This document shows, piece after piece, positions 462 through 35,931 of a stretch of DNA of 64,000 nt. Position 1 is the first letter of the stretch, and the number at the start of each line of letters is the position of its first letter. The notes below the pieces were generated by a model that saw only the letters and a list, made by a program, of their open reading frames with translations, had not been told where the DNA came from and searched no databases. The position numbers were made by a program, and so were the translations under genes. The DNA comes from Brachionus manjavacas. Taxonomy: Eukaryota; Rotifera; Eurotatoria; Ploima; Brachionidae. The stretch lies in assembly GCA_019054805.1 (NCBI GenBank), contig JAHQIY010000008.1:2341501-2405500 (forward strand). The letters run 5' to 3'.

Positions 462-533
462 GGTTCTATGGTGTAACGGTTAGCACTCTGGACTTTGAAT
501 CCAGCGATCCGAGTTCAAATCTCGGTAGAACCT
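462..533 (+). tRNA. tRNA-Gln (UUG)
   Basis: A complete 72 nt cloverleaf. The acceptor stem GGTTCTA pairs with TAGAACC and is followed by a T discriminator. The anticodon loop CTTTGAA has anticodon TTG at 495-497, which reads CAA (and CAG) as glutamine. The T arm contains the internal Pol III B-box core GTTCAAATC. A T run follows within about 10 nt and can serve as terminator. It is the only one of the six identical copies on the plus strand, converging on the copy at 875. Confidence 0.97.
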
Positions 534-874
534 TTCGAATTTTTTCAAACTCCGGTTCAATTTTTTATTAAAAATATTTTTAAACTGCAAAAAAGTTTTT
601 TTAATTAAATTTTTAAATTTCATTTAAAGATTTTTTTTTTAATTTGACCAAATTTACATTACTTTACCAAATATTTGAGTGACTAAATTTTCCAAAAACT
701 TAAATCTTCTGAGCAAAAAATGTTCAAAAAATTTTAAAATAAATGTGTCCAAATAAAATTTTTTTGTCAAATCCATAAAATTAAAAAGTTTTCGAAATTC
801 TGTTCAAAAACATTATTTTACAGTTTAAAAATTTTTCTAATAAAAACGTGAGTCAGACTTGGAAAAAAATGTAA
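534..874. other. spacer between convergent tRNA genes
   Basis: AT-rich, with no feature apart from the T-rich Pol III termination tracts that flank each tRNA. Confidence 0.5.
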
Positions 875-946
875 AGGTTCTACCGAGATTTGAACTCGGA
901 TCGCTGGATTCAAAGTCCAGAGTGCTAACCGTTACACCATAGAACC
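875..946 (-). tRNA. tRNA-Gln (UUG)
   Basis: Identical over 72 nt to the copy at 462-533 but on the minus strand. Its flanks (TTTACATTTTTT after the gene and AAGATGAGTG-like sequence before it) match those of the copies at 2186 and 5184, so these three form one flank type. It lies about 90 bp downstream of the dynein stop codon and on the same strand as dynein. Confidence 0.97.
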
Positions 947-1033
947 ACTCATCTTAAATTAAATTTTAGCAAAAATTTATTGATTTTTTTTAATTTTATT
1001 GAAATAACAAACATTTACAAAGCTTTAAAAGTT

Positions 1034-13000: not shown

Positions 13001-16000
13001 GTTACGGTCGAATTCTTTTGCCAAAATCATATTCAGTTCGGATGCAGTTTGAAGTTGATTTTTCATTTTAATCACCTTTTCCTCTTGTTCTTCTTTATCG
13101 ACCGTAGCTTCTTCAAAGTTTTGTGCCAAGTCTTTGAGACGAGCGTTCAATGCTTCGCTCTTGCGGTTCAAAGTGGTCAATTTTTGATCAGCTTCTTTGA
13201 CTTCTTTTTCTATTTCTTCGACCTTTTTGTGCAAAGGCTTCACATGCTTTATCATTAGTATATGATAGCGAAGAACACCTTTAATCCATTGGTTCAGTGT
13301 TCTCAGCGCTTCCAAGTGCAAACCAGTACGGCTTGACTCGTCTTTTGAATCATTTGAGTCTATTTTTTTGATCAAATCTTCTAAAAGTTTTATTGTGTTT
13401 TCGCTTATTTCTCTTTCGTCAAAAGACTGAAGTTCTTCGAGAAATCGATCTAAATTGGCCATTTGACGCTTGGCACCTTTTTGCCATGTGACATCAGCAG
13501 TTGGACTTTTCACTAAAAATCATTTAAATTTAAAATTAAGCTTAAATTATAAATACTTAAAAATTCATTAAGTTTTTATTCTATTTTTATATTATTTTTA
13601 ATAGGAATTAGCTTTAGCTGGTTAGCTGTAAAACCTATACCTAAAAGAATTGTAAAAAAACAACAACACCGGGTGTAAATCATAAACAATAACAAAAAGT
13701 CAATTTTTTTTTTCGATTTACTTATTACTGCTAACCTGAATTTAATTTTAACCCTTTTTCATCTAAAAGAAATCATCATCATTATTAAATTTTAACTCTC
13801 CAGACACATCCAAAAGTTGATGATTTTTTTTTTTAAATTTCTATAAAGAATTTAGTTTTTATAAATTAATTTTTTTTGCCATAAACAATTAAAAAAAATT
13901 AAAATAAAAGACCATTTTATACCAAATCAATCAATTTCTCTTTCAAAAAGAGACCAAAAAACTATCCAAAGTCAAAGTCCATACTTGACTTTGATTTCAT
14001 CACTTAAAAAAATTTGTCCTTTTTGACAATTTTCATGATTTACACCTTTTAGCTCGGTTCAGATAAACAAATAACTAAAAAGAATTAATTTATTTACAGA
14101 TCATGATTACTGCTGCTAGAATATCTTCCATTTTACTGTCGGGTTTCTGAATGCTTCTCAGTTCTTGGAGACTATTCATGTTAATATTTTGAATTAGTTT
14201 TTTTGTATTGGCCACAATTGCCACAGTTTTGTAAACATTTCGTTCATGAGCTGATTGATATTCAGGAAGAATCTGTAAATAAATTATTTAGCTGGTTGCA
14301 GATTTTTTGAAAATTTTATTAACCCTTTTTAATTGAACTGTTTTTTTAGTTTGCATGTTATGAACTTTGAGCTGTTGTTCGGTCATTGTCATGTCCTGAC
14401 CAATTTGCTGCAACATTTTATTAGTACTCTTTAAAAAAATTTATTTATCTTTTATTTTCTAGATAAAAGAAATCAATTACATTTATTCTTTCCTCAAGTA
14501 CCATGTTTTCCTGCTGCAACTGGACTAGTAATTTTTTAGCTGTACTATGCTGCTTTTGAATATTCTCGAGAAGTCTACATACATTTTTGTGTGAGTGCTC
14601 GATTTCATTGTATTTATTGATTAATAAATCTTTGAATCTAATTGAAAAATTAATTTCGTTTCTTTTCCAAAAAAAAATATTCTTTACTTTTCAACAAATT
14701 TTGTATATGTAATGTTGTTTAGGTGGGCCGATGCACTTGTATCATTTTCTCGAATTGAATTATGCATCGAAGCCAACAAGTGAGCTAAATTTTCTCGTGT
14801 TGAAGAGTCAAGCCATTTGATATCTAAAATGATTTTGTTAATAATTTTAAAATTTTAAAATTTTATCTATTTAATTTTTTATAATAAAATAGAATAGAAT
14901 TTTTTTTTCTCTTGTTCAATAAATTATTCAAGCTTTTGATAATTTTTTTCTTAAATTGATTACCTTTAAAGTGATATAAAGCATTATCAACTAATTGTTT
15001 CAGACTCCAATGCTGAATCCATATTAGTTCCATATTGTTAAATAAAGAGGGATTTTCAAGGCCTAGGTTTTGGAATTTTTTTGCATTTTCATTCAAAACA
15101 ATTACGATTCGGGTATTTTCCCGAATATTTCTATGATAAGAAAAAATTTTAAAATTTTTGAATTATAATCTTGAAATTTAAGTACTTAACAAAAAATTCC
15201 CATGCAGTTTCTCTAGTGTACACTAGGCCAGATTGAACGACCTGAGTTCGTATGGAATTAAGAATTGTGGTCTCTTCTTCAATTGTAAATAAATGCATGA
15301 CTTCTTCAGATATCAAAAATTCAGTGATATAAGCCAAAAATTCTTTCTGATCCATTTCTTCCTCTGTTAAACAAAGCATTACTTTTTCGCCCTTTAGCCC
15401 AAAAATAATAAAAGTGAAAAAACAGAATTTTATTTTTTTTACTCTTATTCCAGCTTTGTAATATGATGAAATAAGCCTAGTCTTGAGTTGCTGGAAAAAC
15501 GCCTCTTTACTATACATAAACTGACTTGCTTTAAATTGAACCAAGCTGTATTGCATTAGAGAGGCGACTAATTGCAGAATAAAAGGAGATATTCCACCAT
15601 CAGCTACAATACAACAATTTCCCGCAACACACTGTGTAGTATGACACAATCTAGATATCAACATTACTGTCGATTCATACAAAGGAATTGATATACGCTG
15701 GTTTTCTTTGTTGTACTCATTTACAGCTATTTGAATCAAATGTCTAATCTGAATTATGTCATCAGTTGGTTCGTATCCATCAATAAAAATATTAGAACCG
15801 TAGTTTGAGCTATTGGCAGTGTTTAGTCCAGCCATGACTATACCACTCTCGGTTTCCTTCAAATTCGAGTAGTAGACTTGGCGATTCAACAGGGCCAATT
15901 CATGCTGATCAGTAAAATTCATTTTGATTACAGTTTTGTAAGCCAGTTGGTATCTTTCAACATCTACAGTATCTATCATTCGTTGTCCGTATAACCAGTC

Positions 16001-19000
16001 ACATTCATGGTGCCACAGGAGCAGTATTTGTTTTTTACTACATTCAGGTGTTAATGACACACACATGTGTCTGAATAGAGAAGTCAAAGCTCGCAGAGTA
16101 AAAATATAATGCAATCTTTCCGATTTTTCAAGATAAAGTGAACGCATCTTGTGGTTCAAATCGATCGATGACTGAATTATATTTTTTAACACTGTCTGAA
16201 GACTCTTTAGTCTTCCAACAATTGCTGCATTTACCTTTTAAGTTAAATAAATTGAGTTTACATACATTACACGAATAAAACTTTGAGGAATAATAAATAT
16301 TTCTTCCTCTTACTTAAAAGTTGAGCCTTCGACAATGAGCGTATTTTTATAGCTAAATTTTCTTTTGTGTTCTTTGCTTAGTAATTCTTTACTTTGTTTC
16401 TGGCTAATTTAACAAATAAAAAAGCTTCTAACTTATTTTAATTCACCCGATTCCCTAAATCAGGGCTTATCCTGAAACGACAAAGCTCAAGACAGATTTT
16501 CTCCACAAAAATAAATAAAGGACCAAAGAACACAAAAAAAAATTTAGCATTAAAAATAAGCTCATTGTTAATCCATATAAAAGTTAGAGGAATCTACAGT
16601 TTCTTTTTTTTTAATATATTTTTCATTATTTAATCCTTTTTTTCTATTTTATCTTATTTAACTTTATTTTTAATTTTATTTATTTTTATTTTTTAATAAA
16701 GTGATCTAATCAGGGTCTATTAACAATTATTTTAATCAAATTAATAATTAAGTCAGCATCAATTTGATTCCTTTTTAATTATTTTTTTTTCGTTTTTAAA
16801 GAAATAAGGTTATTAATGATTTTAATTTAGCTTTTTGAAGATTGATTGCTGTTTAAAATACCGTTGAGACCTTAAGGCCTTACAATTTAAGCGGAAATAC
16901 TATAAAATAAAACGTATTCTTTTTCAAAGATAAAAAATACAAATAAAATAATTAGATCGGTACATTTATATATTCTTGTTTTAAAGGATATGCAAAAATG
17001 TTATTAAAATAAATTGAAATACCTTAGCATTGCTGGATTCGTTTTCAACATCGCCTATTAAGTGTCTATACAGTAGCTTGGTGTAAATTCCATGTATTTG
17101 AGCATTGCTAAAAAAAGAAACGATTTTAACAAAAAAAATTAAAATTTTAATTTTAGTAAGAAATACAGTTTTAAACCAGAAATTTAAAAAAATGAATTCA
17201 ATTCTATAAAACCTTGGTTGAACTCATTTTTTCTGATTTTTAACTCAAAAAGAATTAAATTAAACAAAAGTAAATCTATTTTTTATAAAAAATGAATTGA
17301 CATAATCTTGAATTTTTAATTATTTAAAATTTTTGTATTTAGAATATTTTTAGAAGACTTTAAAAAAAAAATTAGCTTTACACTAACAATTCGAAAATTG
17401 AATTCAAATTTTAAAATTAACATCAAAAAATTTGAATCAAGATAAAATCTCACTTAATTTTCTGCTTTCAGCTAATGGAAAATGTCAAATTAAAAGTAAA
17501 ACAAATATAAATATCACAAATATTTCATTTATTCCTATAAAATTAACTAAATATTCAATTTGACTTTGATTTCTTTACCATAGTCAAATTGAATATTTAG
17601 TTAATTATTTAGTTAATTGTAAGCAAAATAAAAATACTGAATCTGCTAAATATTTATTTTTTTGACTCGTCTTTCATCCCGTTAGCTTTTAAAAATGAAA
17701 CTGAAATTACAGTTAATACTTAACTAGGTGAATTTTTTTAAATTTACATTTTAGAAATAACCAGCTCCTTGAAAATTTAGCACCCTTTTTTTTTAGGCAA
17801 AAAAAAGGAAAAAATTAAAAAAATTATGTTTCTTTTTCTATTGATATTAAAAATACTCAATTTAATTTAGGATTTTGGTTTTTGTTCAAGTAAATCTTAG
17901 AAAAGTCATAATCATATGATTTTTTTCAGAATCACAACAATCAAAGGTAAATTAGCAAAAATTTTACTTTGGAAAATGCTGGGCAACAACATGGAAGTGC
18001 TTAAGAACTTTGTTCGATACAGAATTTGAAGGTGAGTAAACTCGAGTATTAAATGTACTTATGTAAGTAATGTTTTTAGTTTTTTGCCATTTCTTGTTAG
18101 CAAAGTCGTAGATTCTTTGAGTGTCTAAATGCTGACGCAAAAATTCCACAGCTGTTTGTCTATTATACTCATTTACTTCTGCTTGGTGTATATCATCAAT
18201 AAAACAATACATTCTCTTATTACCCTTTGGAACGTAATACGAGCTGTGCACCCAAGAGAGGTGGTGGTTAATTCTTTTCTGTAAATATGCACTGTTTGTC
18301 AACCGATTTGAATTGATTGTGATGTAAAAAAGTTCTGTCAAATCACCGGAACATGAAGTTTTGAGTTTGTCTGAAATCAAGGATGTCTTTCCAGTACCGG
18401 CTTCTCCGACAATCATAAAAGATTCGTCCAAATTCATCATTATATCAAGCATTGAGCTCAAAAACATAGTGCTTGATGTATGAACAAAAATGTTTAATGG
18501 TATGCCCTGATGGACAGGACAACTAAAGGTGGGTATATTTTCAGACCATAGTTGAAATTGATGCGAATCAATATCATAAAAGTACTCATAAATCTTTTTT
18601 TTTATATTTTAATAAAATTAAGATAATTAAATAAAATTTAAGTTACTGGTCCTTCGTTAGGATACTTATTCAAAAATGACTTAGACCATGAATCAAAAGC
18701 TTCTCTACCTTCTTGAGTCATCGCTGCTGTTATTCCACTTGCAACACAATATTGGCTGATTCCAGCTATATCAATTTCATCCCAACGATCATTATTCTTT
18801 ATCATGCTCTAAAAATTAATATTTAAAAAAAATATTTTTCTTATTTCGATCATTTTTACTTTGAGAATAGAAAGGACTAGTCTAACTTTGGATTCGAATG
18901 TAACTGGTAGGACATCCGAGTAGAAATAAGAATTTAAAGAAATTTCTGATTTTACAAGCCTTAATTGACTTATAAGTTCAATTTTCAGCTTAGACAAGCT

Positions 19001-22000
19001 AGATTGGGATCCATAGTTCATTGATTGAAATGTGGACTCAATTAAATGTTCCCATGTGATCATATTTTCGTTTAAAAATAAAAGATTCGAAGTGGAAATT
19101 ACACTCGGACTCAAATTTGATAGATCATCAGACTTTTAGATAAAATTAGCCTCTAATTTTACAAAAAAATATTTCATAAAAATCTTACTTCCCAAACAAG
19201 TTTTAGTTTATTTAAATTTAATTCAGTTTTTTCACTATTTTGATTCAAAAATAAATGTTCATTGGTAAATAATGACTCGAAAAGATAAAAATTATCTGTT
19301 GAGCTCTAAAGAATAAAAAATTTAAAAAATTTTAAAATTTTACTTATGAAAATTACCTCTCCAACTACATGTAAAAGATTGAAGTCGGAATTTTTTTCAA
19401 AATTTCTCAATGTATTGGGTATCAGACCTTCTTTGAGCGATCTTAAATATTTAAAAAAGTAAATACTTAGGAAAATGAATTATTATTTTATTACCCCGAT
19501 TTTGAAGCTGAATGTCCGAAAAGATCGCTATTTGAATAGCTATTGATAAATACATGTTGATAATCAAACCCGTAGCCTAGCTCAGCGAAGGCGGCGATGG
19601 CTGTCTTTAACAAAGATGTTTTACCAATACCACTTTTCCCAATCAACAAAAGCTTTTGTCAAATATAAATTAAAAAGAAAAAAAATAACTAAAATTAAAC
19701 CATACATTTTTAAATGTGAAAAGATTTTCTATTATGCAAACAACTTTGGTTTGAAATAAAACTGACGGTGCCAGTTTTAACTTATTGGTAGCTAAAACAA
19801 CAGCATCTGGTATGTTGTTCAACTTTATCTTATCCTCAATCTGCATGACTGTTTCTTTTTCGAAAAATATTGGCAAATTCAAAAAATTTACTCCTTAAAA
19901 TACAAATTAAAAATTATGAGTTTGATGAAAAATTATAGAAATTAAATTTAAAATTTTTTAAAGATGTTCTTGAAAAAAGGCTTTTTTAATAATTTAATAT
20001 GATGATTATTATGTTGTTAATTCAAAACATCATATTTTTTTTTAATGTCCATTTTAAATCGCCTTTCTTGCGTAAAAAAGATAGTGTTATTTTCATATAT
20101 TCTATTTAAATGGATTAATAGATTTCAGCCTGTTTTTTAAATTTTTTTACTAATTAAAAAAGATTTTTTTAATTATCTTATGCAAAATTTAAAATTTTTG
20201 TATTCTTTTTTAAAGGAAATCAAAGAAATAGTAAGAAAAGAGCTAAATTTAAAATAATGCCAAAAATGAGTAAAAAATATATGATTCACTTTTTAGACTT
20301 TTTTCTATTATAACTCACCTTAGAATTAATAAAAAAGATCTACGAAATTAATTAAATATCAAAAAAAATTTATAAGGAATAAAAGTATCTTGATTAAATC
20401 AATCTATGTTTTGAATTATTTTATCAGTAATAATCCTTTTTTATTTTCTTAAATCAAAATTTTAAAATATAATTTGAGATGTTGATAATTTTTATAAAAT
20501 AGATAATTAAAAATATTGATCAATTATAGAAGGGACTAAAATAAAATTAGTTGCATTTTTTTGATTCAGATCTTGTGGGTTTATCGAAAGAAAATATTTT
20601 GATAAAGGTAAAATATTAAGCCGTCATATCAATGATTTAATCGTCATATAAAAAAAATTGATTGTCATGTAAAAATTAAGGGAGACAGGACAGAGCCTGG
20701 TTTAGGGATTCGGGTATACTGTAGATTAGAGAACTACTAGTCAAAATTAAAATTAATAGTTAAACTTTAAATCCAATCCATCCATCTGACGATATTATTT
20801 AATTTCAAATGACAATTTAATTATTAATTTGACGGGTTTATAATAATCCATCCTTTGAAAAATACCTGATAAAATCATCAGTGTCGTTTAAAAGTTCCAA
20901 ATTGTCATCAAAAATTTCAAGTCATTAAAAAAGTCTTTGCCTTGGACTTGACTTGTGACTTTTAAACAACTCTGAAATTATACATCAACTTTTAAATATC
21001 TCAATATAATTTAATTTCGAATATTTTCAACAAATCCACATAATATAAATTAAAATTTTCAAAAGAATCCTACAGATAGATTGCTAAAAAAGCTTTCGAT
21101 ATCCAACAATCAACAAAAAAAAAACATTCCTTTAAAAATGCAACACAACATTTTTAAATTCGACTGCAATTATAAAATTTATTTAATGGCTTCCGAAAAT
21201 TATTGGCAATTTTGTTTTTTTTATTTTTTAAAATTGATTCACTAAATGATTATTATTTTAATTTAGATTAAACACTTTTTAATATTTTATTATTACTCAG
21301 TAGAAAATAGAAGAAAAAACTTACCATTTTCGAGTAAAAATTCGTTCCTGTATGCGATTTTAATTTCTGGCCAAACTGATCTGAAATAATTGAACAACAT
21401 TCGACCACTGTTTTTATCTAGCCGTGGAAGAATATAATTGCTTAACACTTGAACAATGGATTCTTGCTCCACTTAAAAAATAAATTTTTCACTCAATGCA
21501 TAAATTTTAAGTAAAAAAAAGCTAAAATAGATAACTATTGATTGACCACAGCTTTAGCATAATATCAAAAATATTACCAAACTCTTTTGTAATGAATCAA
21601 AACCTGTAGAAATCATGAAAATACCTTTATCTGGAGATGGTTGAGAATCATTTTCATCATTCTTTAATGCTTTAGTGTTAATCAAATAGCTAGCTTCTCT
21701 GATCAAAAAAGAAAGCAAGTGAGGGTCAAGAAGCGAAAAGTTTTGATCTTGAAAAAAAAATTATTTTAATCAAAATTTGGTTTTTAAAAAAAACATTACA
21801 GCTTTTTTTGGCATTCGACTGTAGCATGCTGTTGTATATTTTGACTATACGCAATATTTCATTTGAAAGTAAATCACTTTGAGAGAATCCATTTGACATA
21901 AGATTTAAGTTAAGATAATTTTTTAAATTTTCAAAATCAGATTTAATCAGTCGGAATTTTTCGAACAAATCCTTTGAAATAAGATTGAAGTAATGGTCAA

Positions 22001-25000
22001 TTTTGGTGATTCGCATCGAATCAATATGAGAAGTGATGCTGGAATAATTGGAAGGTTCGATGGTAGCAAAATATGTGAAAGTTCCATTTTTTAAGACTAG
22101 CGATGTTGTATAAGGATCATTGTTTATAACTATAGAGTCCTTTCGCTCATTTACCTGTGTCAGGACATTTGACAATGCGCTCATTAGCTGAACAGACAAG
22201 TTGTTTAAATTCATAAATGTAATCCAATAACCTGATATAACCATAGCTTTACAAATATTATTAAGTGAATCATTAGTCGTGTACTCGGAGCAAAGATAAA
22301 AATTATTTTCATAGCCTAAAAATTGACTCAAACATCTAAGAAGACTTTTATTCTAAAAAAAAAAAAATAAAGATTCAAAAAAAATTAATTTGATATCACT
22401 TTTTTTCCGTGTAAAAGGGAGCTTGATTTTGATTGAATTATGTTAACCAAATGGGTTAAAATCACTTCAACTTGTTTAGACTGATAGATTAGTGAACATT
22501 CGTCGTCATTGTGACAAGAAAAGTACTGAAAACCATAATTAATTTCAAAATTAAGAATTTTAATTGTAACTTTAGTGTCAGTGTCTTTGACAAAATAAAA
22601 TTTTGGCGTTTCTAACCACTGAATCGAGTCTATATTCAGATTTTTAGTTATTATCTCTGTTATTAAATTTTTGTAGTAAATGAAAATTTTGATAATTAAA
22701 TTAAATTTTTCATTCTGTTCGGAGCTCATGATAATAGCCGATTTATCATCTGTTTTTTCTTCATTCTGCTCATTTGATTCACTTGAGTTGTTCCTGAATT
22801 GATAAGAATTTAGCTGCTTGTTATAAAATCCAATCAAGTCTACAACTTTAGCCTCTAATTTCTTAATAAAAAAAATTAAAAAAAACTTTAAATTCTTAAA
22901 ATTTTTAACCAACCTTAAGATCGTCAATTTTAGATTCTTTTAGGCATTTTTCAATTTGATTAGTCATTAAAATTCTCAAGCTTAGTTCGATTATTTGTCT
23001 TGTATGCTGGAATAACCAGGAAAATACCGATTGACTTGAAGGAAACTCATTGTTCTCATTGATTGAAGGAAGTGGCCGATTTTGAGCTATGTTGTAATTA
23101 AATGTATGAAAAATTATCAATTTAATAAAAAAAAAGTACATTGAAGCTTAGTTTCAGATGCCTTTGGATCACTTTTAGCAGAATTTGCATTAAATGGAGG
23201 TGGATTTCCGTTAAGGGAAAGTTCTAGTAAAAATTTAAGAGATTCTGGTATGGCCCTTTCAATTGTATTGATAAATTCTTCGATTCCGCCTTTAAATAGA
23301 ACAGGCTAAAGGAATTAAAAAAAAAATTTTAACATCAATATTTCAAATTTTTGTTTGACTTTTTAAATACATTTTTAAATTGAAAAAATTCATCATTTCT
23401 TCCGATGCAACCAGTGATCTTTTTTTCTCCACTAGTTACTTCACTTATTTCCACTGCCTTTATCTCGTTAAATACGCGACAAATGTTCTCAGACAAACTT
23501 TCCAAATTCGAACCACAGCACAACACTTCAAGCATGTCTTCGTCAGTTAATAAATACAACCTGGGACATTTAGATCGCTTTTTGGACATTTCACCGATCA
23601 AAGATTCATAGCATGTTTCTAAGTTATGATGCAGATGCTTCAAAATATTTAAAATATCTAAAAAATGAATTTTCAAAAAATTTTTATTCCAGTAAGTTCA
23701 GCCAAACAGAATGATTTTACTTACTTTTTCGTTGACAACATTTAAGAATGTTAGGATTTCGATGTGTGGCTTTCATCAGAGTTCTAAAGTCTTTATCAGT
23801 TTTGTAAAAATTAGTCGAATCTTGTGGCAAGATTGTATGAATCTCGTATGATGAATAAATCTAAAATTTTATTCATTAAAAAAAAAATATTTAAATCTTT
23901 TAATTTACTGGTTCCAAGCGTTTCCATTTAAGCTGAACCTTGTTCCATTCATACAAAATAGCTTCGATATTTTGCAATGTATTCTGCCATTTAATTATTT
24001 CATCATAAAACGAGCCTGCTGATTGATTTTGCAATAGCTCCTCAAGTACTATTTGATGATGTTCTAATTCTGCAAAAAGTTGTTCTGCATTTTCAAACAG
24101 GTAAACTGGATCGTTTTCCTTTAAATGAAATTTAAAAATAAGTAAAAAAAAACAAACTAATTTTACAGATAAAGGTTCGACTCCTATTAAAGATTGTGGT
24201 AAAGAACCAATACTGAGACGCTTTGTGCTTTTCGTGGACATAGTAGGGAACATTCCAATACGAGATTGTGATGATCTGCGATCATGAGATGATTTATCCT
24301 AAAATTAAACTTCAATCTAAATTCAGCAACCAAAATATAAAAATACGTCTTCTTCATTTAGAATCTTATCTGATGATTCCGATCTGGGATACACATAAAC
24401 TTTTAAACTAAATACTTTGCTCAGCCATATTTCTTCGTAAGTTTTAATGGTTTGTTCAATACTCAAATCTTTGACAGCCTTTTGGACAATAAATTTAACC
24501 TCTTCAACATGACCATGCAAATTTAGATCCAACAATTGACCAAAGGTGAGCATTTTCAAAGTTTCATTATCAACTAAATTAGTTCCGCCAGAAATACGTA
24601 TCAATTGCTTCCAGTGTCTAGTTCTCATTGCCGGATTAGCTATCTCTTCAATAATGGGTAAGCAATTCTAAAATTTAAAAATAATCAAAATTTATCATTG
24701 ATTAAAAAATCAGAAAAAAAATCAACTTTTATGTTATTTATATCAGCTACAGTCCCAGTGTAAGCGTCCCAGACATGAGCTTCTACTGGCAAGTTTTCCA
24801 GCATTTCTAACTGCTTGTCGGTTTCCTCTTGAGCCAATTTTATATTCACTTTTTGCCATCTAATCGATTTCCATTCATTGTGTCGGCAGCGTATGTCTCT
24901 TTGATTTTGTTTTTTATTAAATTTAATTATTTCACTTTTTAATAAAATTCTCACTTGATTGTTTTCCAAGTTTGTTTTAGAATAATAAGGGTAGCTTTTG

Positions 25001-28000
25001 ATTGAATTAAAATCCCGAAATCAACCACATCGGATTCAAGAAGTTCCTGAAGTTGTTTTAGATCCTCAGCTTGGTTTTGTAGACTGTCATATTTTTCATT
25101 AAAAGAGTCTATTAATTTAAATGCTCGCTCATATTCGCATCCCCTGTCAAACACGTACGAGCTTAGTATATCATTTAACAAATTGTTAATCACTGTTGAA
25201 AATTTTTTTAAATCCTAAGCAATTTGAATTAGAAAAATAGATAAAATTTAATTCGAAAGCTACTTCAATGATGATTTTTGATTCTTCTTGAATTGTGGGC
25301 CCAAGTCTTTGTTTTGCCAAAGTAACTTTGGACTTTAAATTGGTCCATCTGACTGGAGTACTGTTGAATTTGGCCTCCAAATCTACGACATCTAATCGCT
25401 TGTACTTCTTAAGCAAGTTCAATGTTCGCTTCATTAGCTCAAATTTAACTTCCATTTCCTGCTGTTTGGACGAAACTTCATTGAACATGCGCATGATTTT
25501 CATAAATGTGGCTGTATCTCTTTCTTCGCCTGTAATTTTTTCAATATCAGGCTCCATTCTTTTCAAAAATTGGTCCAACTCATTCAGTGTTGTTTTTATC
25601 TTTAAAAATTCAGTTGCATTAAGAATTCTAGATTTTGTTTTTAAAATTAATAAAAAAAGTAATCAATTAATTACTTGATCAGATAAAAAACTGGTAAATT
25701 TCCATATTAGTTTATTGGTAATAGTAATCAAAACATCGATGGTAGGCTGTAGTTTGACTCTTATCCAATCTACATCCTGGTAGCTCTGTAAAACTTTGAT
25801 TTTTTCTTGAGCGTTCTTATTAAAAAAATTTCAAATTTTTTTTAATTTAAATTTAATACAAATTCATACCACATAAACTGCAATTTCAGTATTAAAGTCT
25901 TCCAAAAGTGGGGTGGATGTGTTTTCTTTTTCTTGTTTAGACATACTTTGGTAGTAGGGAGACAAAAATGTTCGCTCGATATTTGCTATTGCTTCTGGAG
26001 TAAGAACACTTCCAAGCGAAGCAATGCTCCTTAAAAAAAAATGTTATAATTTTTTATTTGATTTTTAATTAAAAACTACTTTGCCACATTTCTGTTACTC
26101 ATAAAATTTTTAGACGGTGGTCGTGGATTTTTCGATCCAGATAATGAAGCAATTCCTTTCAAAAAGTTAACAAATGTTTCGTGAATATCCGCTGTCCACA
26201 AAAAACTAAATCCATTAAAGTAGTCAAATATTTTCTTGCAATCACTACATGCTTTTTCAATTGAGGAATTTATTTTGTTAACCATTTCATAGATAGTTTC
26301 ATCGCGAGCCACCAATTGATCATAATTATTCTAGAAATAACCAAAAATATATTTATTTAAACAATTTGATAAAATCTTTAATTAAAAATAGTACTCTATT
26401 TTTTCCCAAAACTTGCATGTAACTACCACGTGAAATAAACGTATTTATAAAATCAAACAAAATCTCTTGCAAATTTTTAACATGGCTATTTTCATCTAAT
26501 GGAGGATTGAACAACAATTTTGAATCGATAAGCTCAAGATTGATACAAACAAACGGAGTCTTTAATTCCTTTAAAATTTGAAACCTAAAATAAAATAAGT
26601 TACAAAAAATTTATTTTTACTTCCAGATCTGTCATTGAATTGAGCATATTTTTTAAACTTGACAAAGAGGAAATTCTGAATCCACTAAAAATTATTTCAT
26701 TCATATAGTTTAGATATTCTTGCCAGCCCGGTGATGCCTCGCTGATCCCAACAGCCTCCAAGGTCGACGAAATCAATAAATGAATCTTATTTCCGCCTCT
26801 TGTAATCTCTTTTTTGAAAGCATTGTGTAATTCCCTATTTATAGAAGTTTATTTAATATAAACCAAAAAAATTTACTTAAAATTACATTTGTTTTTCTTC
26901 AAGCTCTTTGGCGCCTTGGCTCAAGCTAAGGTCTCTTTGCATAAAAACATCTGACTTGAAATCACACCAATCATTTACTATTGTGTAAATTTCCTTTGAA
27001 TTTGATTGACAAAGTTCCAAATTTTGGTAAACATCGGTACATATTACCGAATGAGCATTTTCGATATAATCAGGTATTTCTACCGTATTCCATGTAACAT
27101 TTAGAATACCTTGTTCAACAATCTTTAAGAAAAAAAATATGATTTTAAGTTTTGAAATTTTTTTTGTAAATTTTACACTATCAATTTTGGCAAGACGAAA
27201 TTCAAAAAGAGGTTGTTCCTCGTTTTGAATATTCTTCATGATTAAATTGTATTTATCAGCAATTGAATGCATCCTAGTTGCGTATAGTCTCAGCTTGTTT
27301 TCATCCTTTAATTGACTAAATTTGTCTTTTAGAACATCAGTTAAGTCCAAATTAAACGGTGGCATTTCTAAATAGTGAATTTCTTTGAGAAATTTTTCCA
27401 ATTCGAAATCAAAATTGACTTCTATTGAGCTTGGTCTCTTGGCCAGAAGTTCATCAAGAGAGGAATTTTTCAAAACTGTTTGTTGTAGTTTATCAGTCAA
27501 AGACTCTGTAATAGATAATTCCCATTTTTTAAAAGTATCATTTTTACTTCTAAAATCAAAAATTGCATAATTTTATAAATTGTAAAAAATTATAAACACA
27601 AACTTTTCGATCATATCAAGTGTACTTTTGTAAGTTTCTCTTAAATTGTAACCAAGATCGCCTTGCAATAAATTCGGATATAAATGACTAAATTTTTCCA
27701 TTGGTACTTTAATTCGCTGTTCCAGGCCATGATACCAGAAACACTTGTTGACAATATTGGGCATTACTGATTGAACTTCTTCTGTACTATTTGCCAATTG
27801 CTTTACATTACTAAACTCTTTAAGCATCTCGTTCATTAACCAGACATACTCGGATGACAGATGAGTCTAATTTTTTGAACAAAAATTAATTTAATTATTA
27901 TTTTAGATTTTTTATTTAGATTTTTTAGACAAAATTTTAAATGTGTTCTTTAGATCTTCTTTTTTGTTGAAGACAACTCAAAAGTAAAAATAATTTAAAA

Positions 28001-30324
28001 AAATTTTTTTTTTTCAGCTAATTTTTCAAATAATATAAAAGTTTTTGCCTTAATTAATAATAAATGATAAAAAAAATACAATTTTTAAGATAGCATAGAA
28101 TAGCATATTTAAGCAAATTTTTTTTTTTAATAAATTTATTCTGAAATTTCTGGTAGCTAAAATTTAAAAGTCTTTGACTTTAAACCAACTCTGTTTTTGC
28201 CTTAATAATTTTTCTTTGTTAGAGTTTCAAAAAATATTTTATGTTGCTTTCAATTACAAATTAAATTATTGCGACTGGTAATGGTCAGGTAAAAGTTTTT
28301 TATTTTTCAAAGATTCCATTAAATATTTTCTCAATTTTTTAAAAATCAAAATTCATTTTTGTTTATTTTTTAACTATTTTTAAAACATACTTGAATGACA
28401 TCTCTTTCGTGTACTCCTTCAAATACTTCTAAAAGTCTTAGTTTGGAGCCAATAGTGGTGCAGTGTTTAATGCTTAGATCTAAAATTCTAGATAATTCCC
28501 TTTCCAATTCCTTTAAAAAAAAAATAAATTTAAAAAAAAAAATTGATTAATTACTTTTATTGTTGTTCTTAGGTTAAAAAATGACACTTCAAAATTTTGT
28601 TCTTGATTATCGAAATTCATGACATCTTTAACATTATTTTGAAATTCGTTGATTGCTCTTTGATATTTGGCATGAATTTCTTGGGCCAAAAAGTCCATGT
28701 TTATGTTATCAGAGCCTCCGATAGAAACTGTTTTGGACAAAATTTGAAAATGTCTCATAGTTTGAACCAATTCAAGCACATCATTACATCTTTCCATGAA
28801 CACATTTAGATAATAAAAACAAGGATGATTTCTTCTGGGCCATGGACTATGCTCCCTCATTACTTCAAAGTCATCGTCTTCGTTCATATTTTGGCGATTA
28901 GCCGAGTAAAACTGAATCCACCAAATGTCTTTTTCGTTAAAATCAATTCTTTAAAAATTTTAAATTGAAAATAAAATTCAAAAAATCAATTTTCAACTAC
29001 TTTTTTTCCAGCTTGTGAAATTTAGAGTTTAATGCATCGGCCTTTTCTTTAAAATCTAGATACGTTCCTCTGAACATGGCACATATTCTCAATGCTTCTT
29101 TCAGCTTCGAATATGACTTTATGAAGATTTAAATTTAAACCAGAAAAAAAAACAAAAAAAGGTTTAATTTTACTCTTAATGGATCATCTAAAATATTGTT
29201 GCCGACCACATTTTTGGAAACGTAGACAATTTCGTTTGACAAGAATGAGAGCATATGCGCAAACCTTTCTTTCATGTGGTAGTATTTTGAATTTTGCCAG
29301 ATTAAAAGTAAAGTATGAAAAAGTCCAGTAAAAAGATACTGCGACTCGTCAACTAAATTGGCAATTTTAATCTTGTGCACCCACGGAGTTAAAGTACTAA
29401 TGTATCTGAGATTTACTTCAGCCGACTTTATAGCTAATTTAATTTCAGACTTGATAGAATTAAATGGCTGCAAATAAGCGCTGTTATTATTTTCCAAATT
29501 GATCAAAATATCTTTGACATGAGGTGCGTCTAGTTGAACTAATAAATTATTAAGTTTGTTAATGCAAGAAGTCCAAAGCTGAATTTCGTCTTTGGTGTAA
29601 AAATTAGAATTTGAATTCGAAATGTCTGGTTGCTGCTTTAGAGTTGTTTTGATCAATTTTTGCCAATTGATTAGCGTGGTTTCTAGAATGTGAAGTACTG
29701 ATAGACGTCTGTTGGGATTTGTGGCTGCTAATGCTAAAACATTTAGAGCTGGAAGTGGAAGTGAGACCGAGTCTTCGATGTGAGACTGAGCTACAGCCAC
29801 TTGGGACATAATTCGATGCATTAAGTCCATTAATTTGTCACTATTGTCCTCAACACATAAAAGTGGCATGAATACTTCACGAGTCATTAGGTCCATGTGT
29901 TCCAAAATTCTGTTCGATGACTCAAAATAAGTCACTTGGTTATCTGAAAGGATCAAATTTACAAAATGAAGTTCATTTTTGGAGAAGAATTTTACTCATG
30001 GTCTCGGGAGTGAGTTTTGAGGTATTGGAAATTTTTAGGAAAAAAATTCCCTTGTCTGAACTGTTCTCAGTGGTGCAAGCACGAGAAGCGATCAGATGCG
30101 TCGGAGACTTGGCATAAATATAGAGTTGCTTGACATCCTCATTGTTTAGAAATTCCATAACAATAAGTCTTTAAGAAGAGTTAATTAGGATTTATAGATT
30201 GGAATTTATGAAATAAATACTTGTTGTCTTCGTTTTCAATAAAATTTACTAGAGCTTCTCGTTTAGGATTTAAACAAGAAGCTATTCGTTTCTCTAACCA
30301 CTGATAGCGTGGATCAGATTCCAT
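1034..30324 (-). CDS. divergent axonemal-type dynein heavy chain, AAA1 degenerate
   Basis: A ~29 kb gene of roughly fifty exons coding for about 4,000 residues. The start at 30324 (MESDPRYQWLEKR) has an A-rich context (AAAATGG). The first exons give the N-terminal tail typical of DNAH proteins, including a KGIFFLK motif. Then follow the stem, linker (RLYLLTDEDMLEVL, compare FPRFYFLSDDELLEIL), AAA1-AAA4, a coiled-coil stalk with microtubule-binding region, AAA5-AAA6, the D6 region and the C-terminal domain, ending at 1034 after a Ser/Gln-rich tail of about 95 residues. Splice phases agree at every junction I checked (exons 30221-30324, 29996-30168, 29174-29943, 21800-22352, 1034-1511 and others), and I saw no in-frame stop. 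AAA1 has lost its P-loop and Walker B residues and AAA4 its P-loop, while AAA2 and AAA3 keep Walker A. Family membership is certain. Which DNAH class it belongs to, or whether it is DNHD1-like, is unresolved. A role in cilia is inferred from the family and the X-box at 30449. Confidence 0.93.
1973..2044 (-). tRNA. tRNA-Gln (UUG), intronic
   Basis: Identical 72 nt tRNA-Gln with anticodon TTG. It lies inside a dynein intron on the same strand as dynein. Its 3' flank (TTTCGAATTT) matches that of the copies at 462 and 4972. Confidence 0.96.
2186..2257 (-). tRNA. tRNA-Gln (UUG), intronic
   Basis: Identical 72 nt tRNA-Gln with anticodon TTG, the second gene of duplicated block copy A. Its flanks are of the TTTACATTTTTT type shared with the copies at 875 and 5184. 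Confidence 0.96.
2391..3270. mobile_element. ~0.88 kb TIR DNA element in dynein intron
   Basis: About 65 bp at the left edge (2395-2460) is the reverse complement of the right edge (3199-3270) with few mismatches; both share the core TTAATCTCGGGTTTTTCAAA and the outer CCGTATCCGAA. This is the structure of a terminal-inverted-repeat DNA transposon. No recognisable transposase lies inside, so it is probably non-autonomous. It inserted in the same intron as tRNA block copy A. Confidence 0.75.
2649..2982 (+). CDS. possible two-exon 74-residue ORF inside TIR element
   Basis: An ATG at 2649 opens 26 codons (MPRQTRDFNRRITTSK...) up to a possible GTTAAT donor at 2727. A possible acceptor at 2835 then opens 49 codons ending ...KKAFWRQYS and a stop at 2982. 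Both exons are phase 0 and the product is basic. No family was recognised. It could be a captured or decayed element gene, or chance. Confidence 0.22.
3432..3534. repeat. short MITE-like repeat
   Basis: The edges CAGAATTGTTTAAAAGTC and GACTTTTTAACGACTCT are imperfect inverted repeats. Inside is a run of GACTTGGACATGACTTGAGACTTGTGAC type. A relative with the same edges and GACTTG-rich core lies at 20882-20975 in another dynein intron. Confidence 0.45.
4972..5043 (-). tRNA. tRNA-Gln (UUG), intronic
   Basis: Identical 72 nt tRNA-Gln with anticodon TTG, the first gene of block copy B and equivalent to the copy at 1973. Confidence 0.96.
5184..5255 (-). tRNA. tRNA-Gln (UUG), intronic
   Basis: Identical 72 nt tRNA-Gln with anticodon TTG, the second gene of block copy B and equivalent to the copy at 2186. 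Confidence 0.96.
5805..6515. mobile_element. ~0.7 kb TIR element with decayed ORF
   Basis: The left edge (TATACGAGGATACATAAAATG then TATGTATCCTTCGG) is the imperfect inverted repeat of the right edge (CGAAAGGATACATAAAATATG then CTCGTATA). The interior (about 5989-6236, plus) reads as a broken ORF with one internal stop, containing LLLSIPGVSEP and QSERVLHLS. That faintly recalls the C-terminal end of hAT transposases; the assignment is weak. Confidence 0.55.
6555..7381 (+). mobile_element. pogo/Tigger-like transposon relic
   Basis: The left end starts CAGTCGAGTC followed by TTATAGCGATATTCGC and TATAACGA; the right end finishes AGACTCGACTT. These are typical pogo/Tigger-type termini. The ORF ending at 7062 (plus) encodes a CENP-B/Tc5-type helix-turn-helix pair: NNLTVTELVKKYNRPQSTVS, then KIEEGLDHWFKSVMSYK and GPLIQAQAIKYAM. 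It stops before any DDE domain, so the copy is internally deleted and inactive. It sits in a dynein intron, opposite to the gene. Confidence 0.8.
7919..11350 (-). other. dynein segment: AAA5 end, AAA6 and D6 region
   Basis: The exon at about 11140-11340 contains ENGTIIEFSGKHPPIIYDPF and NWVLKK, equivalent to ENGxIxxxxxRWPLxIDPQxQAxxWI. The next gives SGGQTLYTNCTEIDSILLPL, then FCNPQFQMYFETSIP (the NPxFRLYLTTK motif), then AAA6 helices. The large exon at about 7924-8755 has RLYLLTLICFYIKSEEK, VPNWIPKDNWNDLLAMS, FRKLILHKVLRPDTYIIVL and VKDGFVLLKNIHLA, all hallmarks of the Dynein_heavy region. An intron of about 1 kb (9000-10050) shows nothing recognisable. Confidence 0.88.
8956..10050. other. 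large dynein intron, nothing recognised
   Basis: AT-rich intron between AAA6-region exons. I saw no coding remnant, tRNA or clear inverted repeat. Confidence 0.5.
11352..12388. other. large dynein intron, nothing recognised
   Basis: AT-rich intron of about 1 kb separating the acidic-insert exon from the following AAA5 exon. No gene or clear repeat was seen. Confidence 0.5.
12389..12630 (-). other. dynein segment: acidic low-complexity insert exon
   Basis: A whole exon of about 80 codons (VPSTEMNEENKQDEESQ... to TTMSRIS), dominated by Glu, Asp, Asn and Lys. The phase-1 acceptor and phase-0 donor (GTAATT) fit the flanking exons. It interrupts AAA5 between FASDQITNEPFIG and the exon starting HNEIGDYYV. 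Dyneins I know have no such insert there. Confidence 0.7.
12670..14820 (-). other. dynein segment: stalk and start of AAA5
   Basis: The exons at about 14460-14820 and 14113-14440 give the first coiled-coil helix and the IQKPDSKMEDILAAVIMIC region. The exon at 12679-13513 supplies the microtubule-binding region (DRFLEELQSFD, LEALRTLNQWIKGVLRYH) and the second coiled-coil helix (VKPLHKKVEEIEKEVKEADQ onward). AAA5 then begins with PGASALASGFLIYLGPY. Stalk length looks normal, so microtubule binding may be kept even though AAA1 is degenerate. Confidence 0.85.
14960..17105 (-). other. dynein segment: AAA4 without a P-loop
   Basis: The exon at about 15190-16197 (LHYIFTLRALTSLFRHM, WLYGQRMIDTVDVERY, FIDGYEPTDD) is the D4/AAA4 region. 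Where AAA4 normally has GxGGSGKQS the protein reads VADGGISPF (about 15581-15610), with no Lys-Ser/Thr. The Walker B area reads MLCLTEEEMDQKEFLAYI, keeping a TxxEM/DxxFL-like frame. The next exon (about 14960-15142) gives NIELIWIQHW-type sequence matching the CTTIDWFxxWP motif. A short exon of the region lies at 17025-17105. Confidence 0.82.
16332..16568. repeat. 237 bp MITE with 45 bp inverted ends
   Basis: The left arm 16332-16376 (ACAATGAGCGTATTTTTATA...) and right arm 16524-16568 are near-perfect inverted repeats; both contain TTGTGTTCTTTG. The element lies in the intron between AAA4 exons and has no coding capacity. Confidence 0.8.
17110..17960. other. dynein intron
   Basis: An ~850 bp AT-rich intron between the AAA3 and AAA4 exons. 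The only structure seen is the perfect hairpin at 17543-17604. Confidence 0.5.
17543..17604. repeat. perfect 23 bp hairpin
   Basis: TTAACTAAATATTCAATTTG followed by ACT (17543-17565) is exactly the reverse complement of 17582-17604, with a 16 nt loop. It is probably a fold-back remnant of a small TIR element. Confidence 0.8.
17964..18600 (-). other. dynein segment: AAA3 with intact Walker A and B
   Basis: The Walker A motif GEAGTGKTS is encoded at 18381-18407. Walker B reads YCFIDDIHQ, matching the VFVDDLNMP consensus of AAA3. The RQTAVEFLRQHLD helix and LKHFHVVAQHFP match the PPIELLRQWLD and FTRHFNIISI positions. The GGGR loop of normal dyneins is absent. In known dyneins AAA3 is a regulatory ATPase. 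Confidence 0.87.
18640..19890 (-). other. dynein segment: AAA2 with intact Walker A
   Basis: Walker A GKSGIGKTS is encoded at 19614-19640 in the exon LLLIGKSGIGKTSLLKTA. Following exons give FESLFTNEHLFLNQ and LKLVWESDDLSNLSPSVIS, matching the NSVLDDNKxLTLxNGE and FExDDLSQASPATVSR motifs of AAA2. The usual Walker B VFDGPVD is replaced by LLHVVGES. Confidence 0.85.
19920..21320. other. large dynein intron with a small MITE
   Basis: A 1.4 kb intron within the AAA1/AAA2 region. A GACTTG-rich short repeat with inverted edges lies at 20882-20975 (relative of 3432-3534). Nothing else was recognised. Confidence 0.5.
21320..22861 (-). other. dynein segment: AAA1 with destroyed ATP site
   Basis: The exon 22400-22861 (FEINYGFQYFSC...SSSLLHGKK) splices phase 0 to the exon 21800-22352 (NKSLLRCLSQFLGYENNF). 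The P-loop position thus reads HGKKNKSLL instead of GPAGTGKTE: two residues shorter, with no second glycine. Walker B reads YWITFMNLNNL (about 22196-22224) instead of WACFDEFNRI, losing the Asp-Glu pair. Sensor 1 reads YFATIEPSN instead of VFITMNPGY. YGFQYF, FYLCSEY and NEILRIVKIYN align well to AAA1, so this is a true AAA1 that has decayed, not a missing exon. Confidence 0.88.
22862..25200 (-). other. dynein segment: linker (DHC_N2)
   Basis: Exons read RGCEYERAFKLIDSFNEKYD, NEWKSIRWQKVNIK, AMRTRHWKQLIRISGG (compare LRxRHWxxL), DLSIEQTIKTYEEIW, LQNIEAILYEWNKVQLKWKR and RLYLLTDEDMLEVLCCGSNL. These are the ordered signatures of the linker. A Ser/Arg-rich loop (DRRSSQSRIG, STKSTKRLSIGS) at about 24180-24300 replaces part of the segment after the EEIW helix. 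Confidence 0.88.
26400..30324 (-). other. dynein segment: N-terminal tail and stem (DHC_N1)
   Basis: The tail includes LIVMEFLNNEDVKQLY, KGIFFLKISNTSKLTPETM, MTREVFMPLLCVED and SLPLPALNVLALAATN, equivalent to the opening domain of DNAH outer-arm and related heavy chains. Stem exons follow with WLMNEMLKEFSNVKQLA, LEQRIKVPMEKFSHLYP and FLKEIHYLEMPPF, matching DHC_N1. The exon 29174-29943 alone is 770 bp. An intron at 27870-28390 is empty AT-rich DNA. Confidence 0.86.
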
Positions 30325-35334: not shown

Positions 35335-35385
35335 CCTTCTTAAACTTCCGGACAGAATCAAAATCCAGTTCAATTTCAACACAAA

Positions 35386-35931
35386 ATGAAACAATCATTC
35401 ATCCAAAAGTTAAAAATTAAACTAAAATCTGAACAAAATCAAAATGTCCAAACCGAAAAGTTGCCAGTATGGTTTGTGGACAGCATGACTCGTGATCAAG
35501 CTGAACAAATGCTTATACCTAAAGAAATCGGATTGTTTGTTGTTCGCCGGAGTGAATCAATGTCTGATTGCTATGTACTATCTGTCAAAGTTCCTAAATA
35601 CATGAACTCAAACCAAGTCTCACATTTCTTGATTGTCAAAAGCAAAAAAGGATTTTTCATAAAAGGATCCATGCATAAACAATTCCAAGATATTAAATCC
35701 TTGGTCACTCATTGTTCTTTTATGCGTGATCTAATTCCGATATGCCTCAATTTAGATTATTACAATGACAATAAGCGCAAATTCAATGAGTTCATTTATT
35801 ATTTTAATAGTACTACATCTCTTGATTCATTATCTAGTTCTCATTCAGATTTCTCAGATCTAAACGAACTTGATATTCCACCTTCTAATTCTACATCGAA
35901 ATCAAGCGGTTGTTTCGATGATAGTTTCTGA
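35386..35931 (+). CDS. small SH2-domain protein
   Basis: An intronless gene of 181 residues with a single SH2 domain at about residues 28-125. It opens with WFVDSMTRDQAEQML. The phosphotyrosine-binding Arg is in GLFVVRRSES (equivalent to FLVRESES), the betaD His in SHFLIVKSKKGFFI, and the C-terminal helix region reads FQDIKSLVTHCSFM. The last ~55 residues are Ser-rich and disordered (TTSLDSLSSSHSDFSDL, ending SGCFDDSF), with no SH3 or kinase domain. It is therefore probably an adaptor-like or free SH2 protein binding phosphotyrosine sites in the cytoplasm. No orthologue was recognised. The gene has a TATA box at 35327 and AATAAA at 36002, and lies between two inverted copies of a TIR element. 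Its lack of introns contrasts with all neighbours and may mean a retroposed origin. Confidence 0.87.
   Translation: MKQSFIQKLKIKLKSEQNQNVQTEKLPVWFVDSMTRDQAEQMLIPKEIGLFVVRRSESMSDCYVLSVKVPKYMNSNQVSHFLIVKSKKGFFIKGSMHKQFQDIKSLVTHCSFMRDLIPICLNLDYYNDNKRKFNEFIYYFNSTTSLDSLSSSHSDFSDLNELDIPPSNSTSKSSGCFDDSF

What the first reader, a model, noticed from the sequence alone, without database searches (positions are those of the whole stretch)
21320..22861. Axonemal-type dynein heavy chain with a dead AAA1 ATPase site
Seen: the P-loop position reads HGKKNKSLL (normal GPAGTGKTE), Walker B reads ITFMNLNN (normal CFDEFNR), and sensor 1 has lost its Asn. The flanking AAA1 sequence aligns well and splices in phase. 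Known: AAA1 hydrolysis drives the power stroke in all motile dyneins. The remaining architecture (tail, linker, stalk, AAA2-6, C-terminus) is kept without stops in the traced exons. Inference: a non-motor or regulatory/scaffold dynein, possibly a heavy chain that heterodimerises with an active one. It should be compared with DNHD1 and other divergent dyneins.
Basis: partly seen in the sequence, partly recalled or inferred. Interest (0 to 1): 0.88.

Follow-up and report, generated by a model that had tools for sequence, protein, structure and literature searches.

The report
Animal-wide dead-motor dynein heavy chain
The window holds a complete gene for a giant cilium-type motor protein whose engine site is destroyed; relatives with the same destroyed site occur in animals from rotifers and oysters to sea urchins and frogs, so it looks like a conserved non-motor relative of the outer arm motors of cilia rather than a decaying gene.

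Summary
A 57-exon, 5101-residue dynein heavy chain lies on the minus strand (30324-1034). AAA1 reads HGKKNKS (P-loop) and ITFMNLNN (Walker B); no splice near it restores a P-loop. AAA4 is dead too.

It is no private decay. Two searches gave 65 relatives from rotifers, molluscs, echinoderms, amphibians and other animals. Intact motifs: AAA1 Walker A 0 of 61, Walker B 0 of 61, AAA4 0 of 65, but AAA2 63 of 64 and AAA3 65 of 66. The microtubule-binding stalk is the best conserved part. The family is the sister of outer-arm beta chains DNAH9/11/17.

A second divergent family, sister of DNAH5/8, keeps the AAA1 Walker motifs but has a remodelled stalk. Both families are listed in 20 species and in this genome. 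Animal outer arms pair a DNAH5-type with a DNAH9-type chain (recalled), so I propose a non-motor "ghost outer arm". Pairing, location and function are inferred; DNHD1 could not be compared.

The parts
1034..30324 (-). Whole gene: 57 exons, 5101 aa dynein heavy chain (tail, linker, AAA1-AAA6, stalk, C-terminal region)
   Evidence: Computed exon chain, 56 GT-AG introns, no in-frame stop; hand-edited at a few junctions
27177..29943 (-). Tail (DHC_N1) exons
   Evidence: Pfam DHC_N1 105.5 bits (29941-29174) and 50.9 bits (27548-27177)
23371..24667 (-). Linker (DHC_N2) exons
   Evidence: Pfam DHC_N2 70.6 and 60.0 bits
21325..22854 (-). AAA1 exons (22854-22400, 22352-21800, 21747-21625, 21471-21325); nucleotide site destroyed
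   Evidence: model; AAA_6 34.1 bits; motifs HGKKNKS / ITFMNLNN / YFATIEPS
19495..19652 (-). AAA2 P-loop exon, GKSGIGKTS kept (the Walker B position, in the next exon, reads HVVGE)
17968..18593 (-). AAA3 exon, GEAGTGKTS and FIDDIH kept
   Evidence: Pfam AAA_7 123.4 bits
15443..16234 (-). AAA3 lid and AAA4 start; AAA4 P-loop reads ADGGISPF (lost)
14098..14637 (-). Start of the stalk: first coiled coil and entry to the microtubule-binding domain (14637-14481, 14428-14324, 14272-14098)
   Evidence: model and alignment slice
12679..13512 (-). Microtubule-binding domain, second stalk helix and start of AAA5; family signature TWxKGAKRQMAN
   Evidence: Pfam MT 64.7 bits; 35 of 277 residues invariant in 17 aligned sequences
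12378..12628 (-). Acidic low-complexity insert in the AAA5 region (placement inferred from the order of the chain)
   Evidence: Read
7927..8759 (-). AAA6 region exon (assignment by position)
   Evidence: Position in the chain; no Pfam match on its own
1034..4906 (-). AAA6 lid and C-terminal exons, including the Dynein_C match at 3966-3742
   Evidence: Dynein_C 28.7 bits, cut-off 25.7, at C8:2345242-2345466; exons 4906-4002, 3945-3744, 1911-1757, 1693-1566, 1511-1034

Best explanation
The gene is the rotifer member of an animal-wide family of pseudo-motor dynein heavy chains ("beta-ghost", my label) that split from the outer-arm beta class (DNAH9/11/17). SHOWN: AAA1 lacks the GxxxxGK[ST] P-loop and the acidic Walker B pair in every member tested, AAA4 lacks its P-loop, nearly all keep the AAA2 and AAA3 P-loops, and in the window gene the tail, linker and a very conserved stalk with microtubule-binding domain are kept. 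INFERRED: without ATP turnover at AAA1 and AAA4 the linker stays docked and no power stroke occurs, so the head works as an ATP-insensitive, or only AAA3-tuned, microtubule-binding cross-link on the axoneme (a static arm, brake or spacer). INFERRED: it dimerises through its tail with a DNAH5/8-derived divergent chain ("gamma-ghost"; in this genome at contig C2, about 1109-1132 kb) in place of the usual DNAH5/8 partner. INFERRED: it acts in somatic cilia, because bdelloid rotifers, described as entirely parthenogenetic, keep it.
For: Motif counts over 66 rows (window gene plus 65; rows lacking the region set aside): AAA1 Walker A 0 of 61, AAA1 Walker B 0 of 61, AAA4 0 of 65, AAA2 63 of 64, AAA3 Walker A 65 of 66, AAA3 Walker B 61 of 64; 25 control chains: AAA1 25 of 25 and 25 of 25, AAA3 Walker A 19 of 25, AAA4 23 of 25. 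Trees: the family rows tried (20, 14) form one clade, SH-aLRT 100 and 100/100, sister of DNAH9/11/17 with the EukProt entry Nk52 between; one search left the motif columns out. PDB best matches of the Lingula member: DNAH17, outer-arm beta, DNAH9. Conservation: stalk/MTBD 94% to B. calyciflorus and 50% to Lingula against 69% and 21% for AAA1; 35 of 277 invariant positions in the stalk exon against 5 of 184 in the AAA1 exon. Selection: neutral drift to the observed identity gives on average 36-39 stops per lineage over 3790 codons (minimum 17 in 200 runs), none in the model. Gamma-ghost rows: one clade, sister of DNAH5/8, 100/99; 20 of the 34 species in its list also have a listed beta-ghost. 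Loss of ATP binding at AAA4 alone stops yeast dynein, through linker undocking (PMC7683685, passages).
Against: No expression, localisation or biochemistry. 33 of 61 rows still hold G....GK (Ser/Thr replaced) and 6 of 61 an Asp near Walker B by a loose pattern, so weak nucleotide binding at AAA1 is not excluded outside rotifers. Co-occurrence is mostly amphibian (19 of the 20 species); Latimeria shows only gamma and sturgeon, gar and bichir only beta, in lists that are not exhaustive. Both families are long branches, and the tree tool warns of odd letter make-up for several rows, the window gene among them. Only 19 of the 65 relatives went into a tree. No DNA of a second species was at hand, so no dN/dS. 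DNHD1 was not compared, and the main dynein census (Kollmar 2016) could not be read.
Confidence: 0.6

Rival explanations
1. The dead head is one half of an active motor: beta-ghost pairs with a chain that still hydrolyses ATP (gamma-ghost, or canonical DNAH5/8), and serves as the passive microtubule-gripping foot of a slow or one-headed arm.
For: Gamma-ghost rows keep AAA1 Walker A in 35 of 35 and D[DE] at Walker B in 36 of 36, with the full DE in 4 of 36: rotifer, two sea urchins and oyster; the stalk slice of the five rows measured is 399-409 residues against 268 in DNAH5, so the two chains look complementary.
Against: Gamma-ghost lacks the AAA4 P-loop in 35 of 35, and loss of AAA4 ATP binding stops yeast dynein (PMC7683685, passages); the AAA1 sensor NPG is seen in only 1 of 18 gamma rows covered, and 32 of 36 have Asp for the Walker B Glu. 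No pairing data.
Confidence: 0.25
2. The family is the invertebrate and amphibian form of DNHD1, the orphan or ghost dynein heavy chain of mammals, so it is already known in outline.
For: DNHD1 is described as an orphan DHC, maybe a duplication remnant (PMC8754002, passages), and its mutations affect sperm flagella (PMC9916431, passages).
Against: No row named DNHD1 among the listed hits although mammalian DNAH rows are there; but the word filter could miss it, and many rows carry no name. A third divergent chain in this genome is another candidate for it.
Confidence: 0.12
3. A pseudogene or an assembly or splicing artefact.
For: AAA1 is among the least conserved stretches; no transcript was seen.
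Against: 81% identity to B. calyciflorus over the whole query, 56 GT-AG introns, exon GC 0.333 against intron GC 0.205 and no stop where drift would give on average 36-39, and the same motif losses across animals.
Confidence: 0.03
4. A non-ciliary role, for example a cytoplasmic microtubule cross-linker.
For: No localisation data exist here.
Against: The sister classes are axonemal outer-arm chains, and the tail is kept.
Confidence: 0.1

Closest known systems
Outer-arm beta dynein heavy chains DNAH9/DNAH11/DNAH17
   Same: Sister class in the trees; same tail and linker domains, stalk of nearly equal length (262-265 residues in six family members against 261 in DNAH17), AAA2 and AAA3 P-loops
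   Different: AAA1 Walker A and B and the AAA4 P-loop lost; the stalk, not AAA1, is the conserved core; own MTBD signature TWxKGAKRQMAN
DNHD1 (orphan mammalian dynein heavy chain)
   Same: Divergent, full-size, called orphan or ghost gene (PMC8754002, passages)
   Different: Not comparable here: no sequence obtained; the listed family rows hold no mammal
DNAH5/8 and the divergent DNAH5/8-related family found here (gamma-ghost)
   Same: Parallel divergent family in many of the same species and in this genome; also AAA4-dead
   Different: Keeps the AAA1 Walker motifs; remodelled stalk with an insert; Pfam stalk domain PF12777 in 0 of 35 listed rows (two are truncated near 3000 residues) against 63 of 65 for the window family (lists)

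Membership tests
Dynein heavy chains | Tail DHC_N1, linker DHC_N2, dynein AAA modules, MT stalk | tested here: met
   Pfam on ten window exons: DHC_N1, DHC_N2, AAA_6, AAA_7, AAA lids and MT over cut-off in eight, no match in two; Dynein_C at 3742-3966
Canonical outer-arm beta motors (DNAH9/11/17) | Intact AAA1 ATPase site | tested here: not met
Canonical outer-arm beta motors (DNAH9/11/17) | Falls inside the DNAH9/11/17 clade | tested here: not met
   Separate clade, sister to it, 100/100
Beta-ghost family (defined here) | One clade with rotifer, mollusc, echinoderm and amphibian members | tested here: met
   100/100 with 14 rows; SH-aLRT 100 with 20 rows
Beta-ghost family (defined here) | AAA1 and AAA4 lost, AAA2 and AAA3 P-loops kept, stalk kept | tested here: met
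DNHD1 | Clusters with mammalian DNHD1 | not testable with these tools
   No DNHD1 sequence among the listed hits; Kollmar 2016 not held under the DOI I recalled
Pseudogene | Stops, frameshifts, no constraint | tested here: not met
   simulation; 81% identity at 100% coverage; dN/dS not run

The most novel reading that the evidence does not exclude
Animals carry a second, non-motor outer-dynein-arm-like complex: a heterodimer of two heavy chains that arose in parallel from the two classes of the outer arm. The DNAH9-type chain lost its engine but kept the foot; the DNAH5-type chain kept the AAA1 Walker motifs but had its foot rebuilt with an insert. It would be a static or load-sensing arm in somatic cilia, dispensable in the lineages for which no member was listed (mammals, birds, teleosts, arthropods). 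It may have begun before animals, since the EukProt relative Nk52 still has the AAA1 Walker A but already lacks the Walker B pair.
Probability: 0.35. Interest if true: 0.9.

Novelty: new variant of a known kind. Interest (0 to 1): 0.8.

Why it matters
AAA1 hydrolysis is held to power dyneins. A giant dynein family that has lost this site, yet kept its microtubule-binding stalk best of all across a wide range of animals, would say that natural selection uses the dynein frame as something other than a motor. If it sits in cilia, the list of outer-arm components known from mammals and algae misses one that many animals have. It makes the "ghost" dynein question testable in frogs and sea urchins, and it supplies a natural engine-dead dynein with only AAA3 left among the three ATPase sites AAA1, AAA3 and AAA4.

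Tried and rejected
Alternative exon or splice that restores the P-loop: none possible in 21900-22900, no third motif in the gene span. Pseudogene: disfavoured. First automatic gene models failed on weak coding statistics; retrained, then edited by hand: false short introns merged in AAA2 and AAA6, tRNA-like and other spurious exons removed, one 48-nt AAA1 exon (21583-21536) left out, the 1756/1693 junction chosen over a 24-nt intron. DNHD1: sought by name in papers and in three protein searches, not reached. P0235 was first suspected to be DNHD1; one search showed a separate DNAH5/8-related family and no row of that name. Structure: the model of the AAA1 exon (184 residues, starting just after the splice junction in the P-loop; mean pLDDT 74.3, pTM 0.57) matches chains of 2245 residues or more from dynein and axonemal doublet entries in the 50 rows shown, but TM-scores are about 0.5, so it says only that the fold is plausible; the stalk exon model (pLDDT 67.2, pTM 0.33) is uninformative and was not searched. 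Paper searches for an AAA1-dead conserved DHC family or DNHD1 (some listings capped, empty) listed none that I recognised as describing one. The 2007 census (PMC2239267, passages) set a score threshold that left out extremely divergent sequences. The sea-urchin cilia proteome (PMC3812683, passages) lists DNAH8 with 123/135 and DNAH11 with 15/21 counts; these labels might hide the ghost pair (the sea urchin gamma-ghost P0266 is itself named DNAH8), but the gene ids could not be mapped.
Full report
WHAT IS THERE. The window is C8:2341501-2405500 of a 114 Mb genome. By 81% identity to a Brachionus calyciflorus protein the source is probably a related rotifer (inference). On the minus strand an exon chain from 30324 to 1034 gives 57 exons, 56 GT-AG introns and 5101 residues without an internal stop. 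The model was trained on dynein exons of the same genome and on open stretches of the window, then edited by hand (see Tried and rejected). Pfam on ten window exons finds DHC_N1, DHC_N2, AAA_6 (34.1 bits), AAA_7 (123.4 bits) and the MT stalk (64.7 bits); two exons of the AAA6 and C-terminal region have no match on their own, while Dynein_C matches at 3742-3966 (28.7 bits).

THE OBSERVATION. AAA2 keeps GKSGIGKTS, AAA3 keeps GEAGTGKTS and FIDDIH, AAA4 reads ADGGISPF. In six frames over 1000-30400 the motif G....GK[ST] occurs twice only, in the AAA2 and AAA3 exons; no GT-AG pair in 21900-22900 makes another.

A FAMILY, NOT A WRECK. A protein search with a 2685-residue piece of the model, from the end of the tail to AAA5, gave ten proteins at 1014-4785 bits, then a drop to 543 bits and ordinary DNAH chains (120 of 175 hits listed). 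A second search from the Lingula member gave an annelid, molluscs, a nemertean, echinoderms, amphioxus, tunicates, sturgeon, gar, bichir, frogs, salamanders, bdelloids, an acoel and a hydrozoan (120 of 125 listed). I counted 65 proteins as family by score (P0001-P0010 and P0121-P0175). Over these plus the window gene, with rows lacking the region set aside: AAA1 Walker A 0 of 61, AAA1 Walker B 0 of 61, AAA2 Walker A 63 of 64, AAA3 Walker A 65 of 66, AAA3 Walker B 61 of 64, AAA4 Walker A 0 of 65. Twenty-five ordinary chains gave AAA1 25 of 25 and 25 of 25, AAA2 25 of 25, AAA3 Walker A 19 of 25, AAA4 23 of 25. The sensor NPG is seen in 1 of 61 family rows. Against a total loss: 33 of 61 rows still hold G....GK with the Ser/Thr replaced, and 6 of 61 have an Asp near Walker B by a loose pattern. 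So erosion is graded, and is greater in rotifers, where the motif is also shortened. Row P0166 carries a transposon-like insert in its gene model and was kept in the counts.

CONSTRAINT. Window gene against B. calyciflorus: stalk/MTBD 94%, tail 93% (269 aligned residues only), AAA3 91%, AAA4 90%, linker 82%, AAA5 79%, AAA2 75%, AAA6 74%, AAA1 69%, C-terminal part 65%. Against Lingula: stalk 50, AAA4 38, AAA3 37, AAA2 24, AAA1 21%. The stalk was the highest in 7 of 7 comparisons. In 17 aligned sequences, 35 of 277 positions of the stalk exon are invariant against 5 of 184 of the AAA1 exon. Neutral drift to the same identity would leave on average 36 to 39 stops per lineage over 3790 codons, minimum 17 in 200 runs; the simulation has no indels, and gene models, mine and the relative's, could hide stops. 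Exon GC is 0.333, intron GC 0.205.

ORIGIN. A maximum-likelihood tree of 53 rows and 1855 columns (quick), and a careful one of 39 rows and 1764 columns with the AAA1 and AAA4 motif columns left out, both make the family rows one clade and sister of DNAH9/11/17, with the EukProt entry Nk52 (P0176) as nearest outgroup (100 and 99; 100/100). For the careful tree 14 of the 53 rows were dropped, long branches and near-duplicates. Both runs warn that several rows, the window gene among them, have an odd letter make-up, and flags the hydrozoan and DYNC2 rows as long. I recall Nk52 as the ichthyosporean Chromosphaera perkinsii; the taxonomy look-ups found no such name. P0176 has the AAA1 Walker A but no Walker B pair, and an intact AAA4 P-loop. 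The PDB best matches of the Lingula member are DNAH17, outer-arm beta and DNAH9.

A SECOND FAMILY. The same genome has at C2:1108001-1138000 a chain that matches a frog protein (P0235) far better than DNAH5/8. A search from P0235 gave 35 family rows of 34 species: amphibians, Latimeria, sea urchins, Styela and an oyster (63 hits in all, only the 1178 candidates sharing most words were scored). Motifs over these 35 plus the rotifer chain, rows lacking the region set aside: AAA1 Walker A 35 of 35, Walker B 36 of 36, AAA3 33 of 36, AAA4 0 of 35; but the Walker B Glu is Asp in 32 of 36 and the sensor NPG is seen in 1 of 18. The stalk slice of five rows is 399-409 residues against 268 in DNAH5, and PF12777 is in 0 of 35 listed rows (two of them truncated) against 63 of 65 of the window family (lists). 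It is the sister of DNAH5/8 (100/99). Twenty of its 34 species also have a listed member of the window family (19 amphibians and Strongylocentrotus purpuratus), and so has this genome. Ordinary chains are present here too: DNAH17-like L006, DNAH5-like L008 and L017, DNAH2, DNAH10, DNAH1, DNAH6, DYNC1 and DYNC2 types. So the divergent pair is extra.

MECHANISM. Established knowledge: AAA1 turnover drives the stroke and stalk registry (also stated in PMC12338079, passages); blocking ATP binding at AAA4 stops yeast dynein because the linker cannot undock (PMC7683685, passages). A head without AAA1 and AAA4 sites should therefore stay with a docked linker and grip microtubules without cycling, perhaps tuned by AAA3. 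Canonical animal outer arms pair a DNAH5-type with a DNAH9-type chain (recalled), so the two ghost families are the natural candidates for one another. Bdelloids keep the gene (P0005, P0006, P0173), and Bdelloidea are described as entirely parthenogenetic (PMC2784805, search listing), so a purely sperm role is unlikely. All of this paragraph beyond the citations is inference.

NOVELTY. DNHD1 is the known orphan DHC (PMC8754002, passages). I could not compare it. Nine paper searches listed nothing that I recognised as a description of either family, but their listings are partly capped and most subscription papers are not held. Kollmar 2016 is not held under the DOI I recalled, and it may contain these families among its classes. 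I therefore score it as a new variant of a known kind.

Noticed in passing
L009-L011 (G000:C2:1108001-1138000, + strand): A second divergent DHC, rotifer member of a DNAH5/8-related family with AAA1 Walker A GKPNSGKTQ and Walker B FDEL kept, AAA4 P-loop lost and an enlarged stalk.
   Followed up: partly
L012-L016 (G000:C8:236001-282000, + strand): A third divergent, apparently coding DHC, nearest to DNAH6 among 20 references (352 bits in 6 pieces), with a stalk-like stretch; a possible DNHD1 or DNAH14 relative.
   Followed up: partly
L024-L028 (contigs C30, C3, C29, C24): Partial AAA1 fragments, several with stops, of DNAH6- or DNAH5-like type; they look like pseudogene pieces, some repeated.
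   Followed up: no
window 461-5255: Six tRNA-Gln (ttg) genes; two pairs (1972-2257 and 4971-5255) sit in introns of the dynein gene within a duplicated stretch.
   Followed up: no
window 35344-60155: Other genes: SH2 protein (35344-35931 +), cyclin (42736-43284 +, in a GC-rich patch; CycT2-like match just under its cut-off), sodium:neurotransmitter symporter (53750-51817 -), proteasomal-type AAA ATPase (58932-60155 +).
   Followed up: no
P0176 (EukProt Nk52): Nearest outgroup of the dead family: AAA1 Walker A intact, Walker B pair lost, AAA4 P-loop intact; looks like a half-way state.
   Followed up: partly
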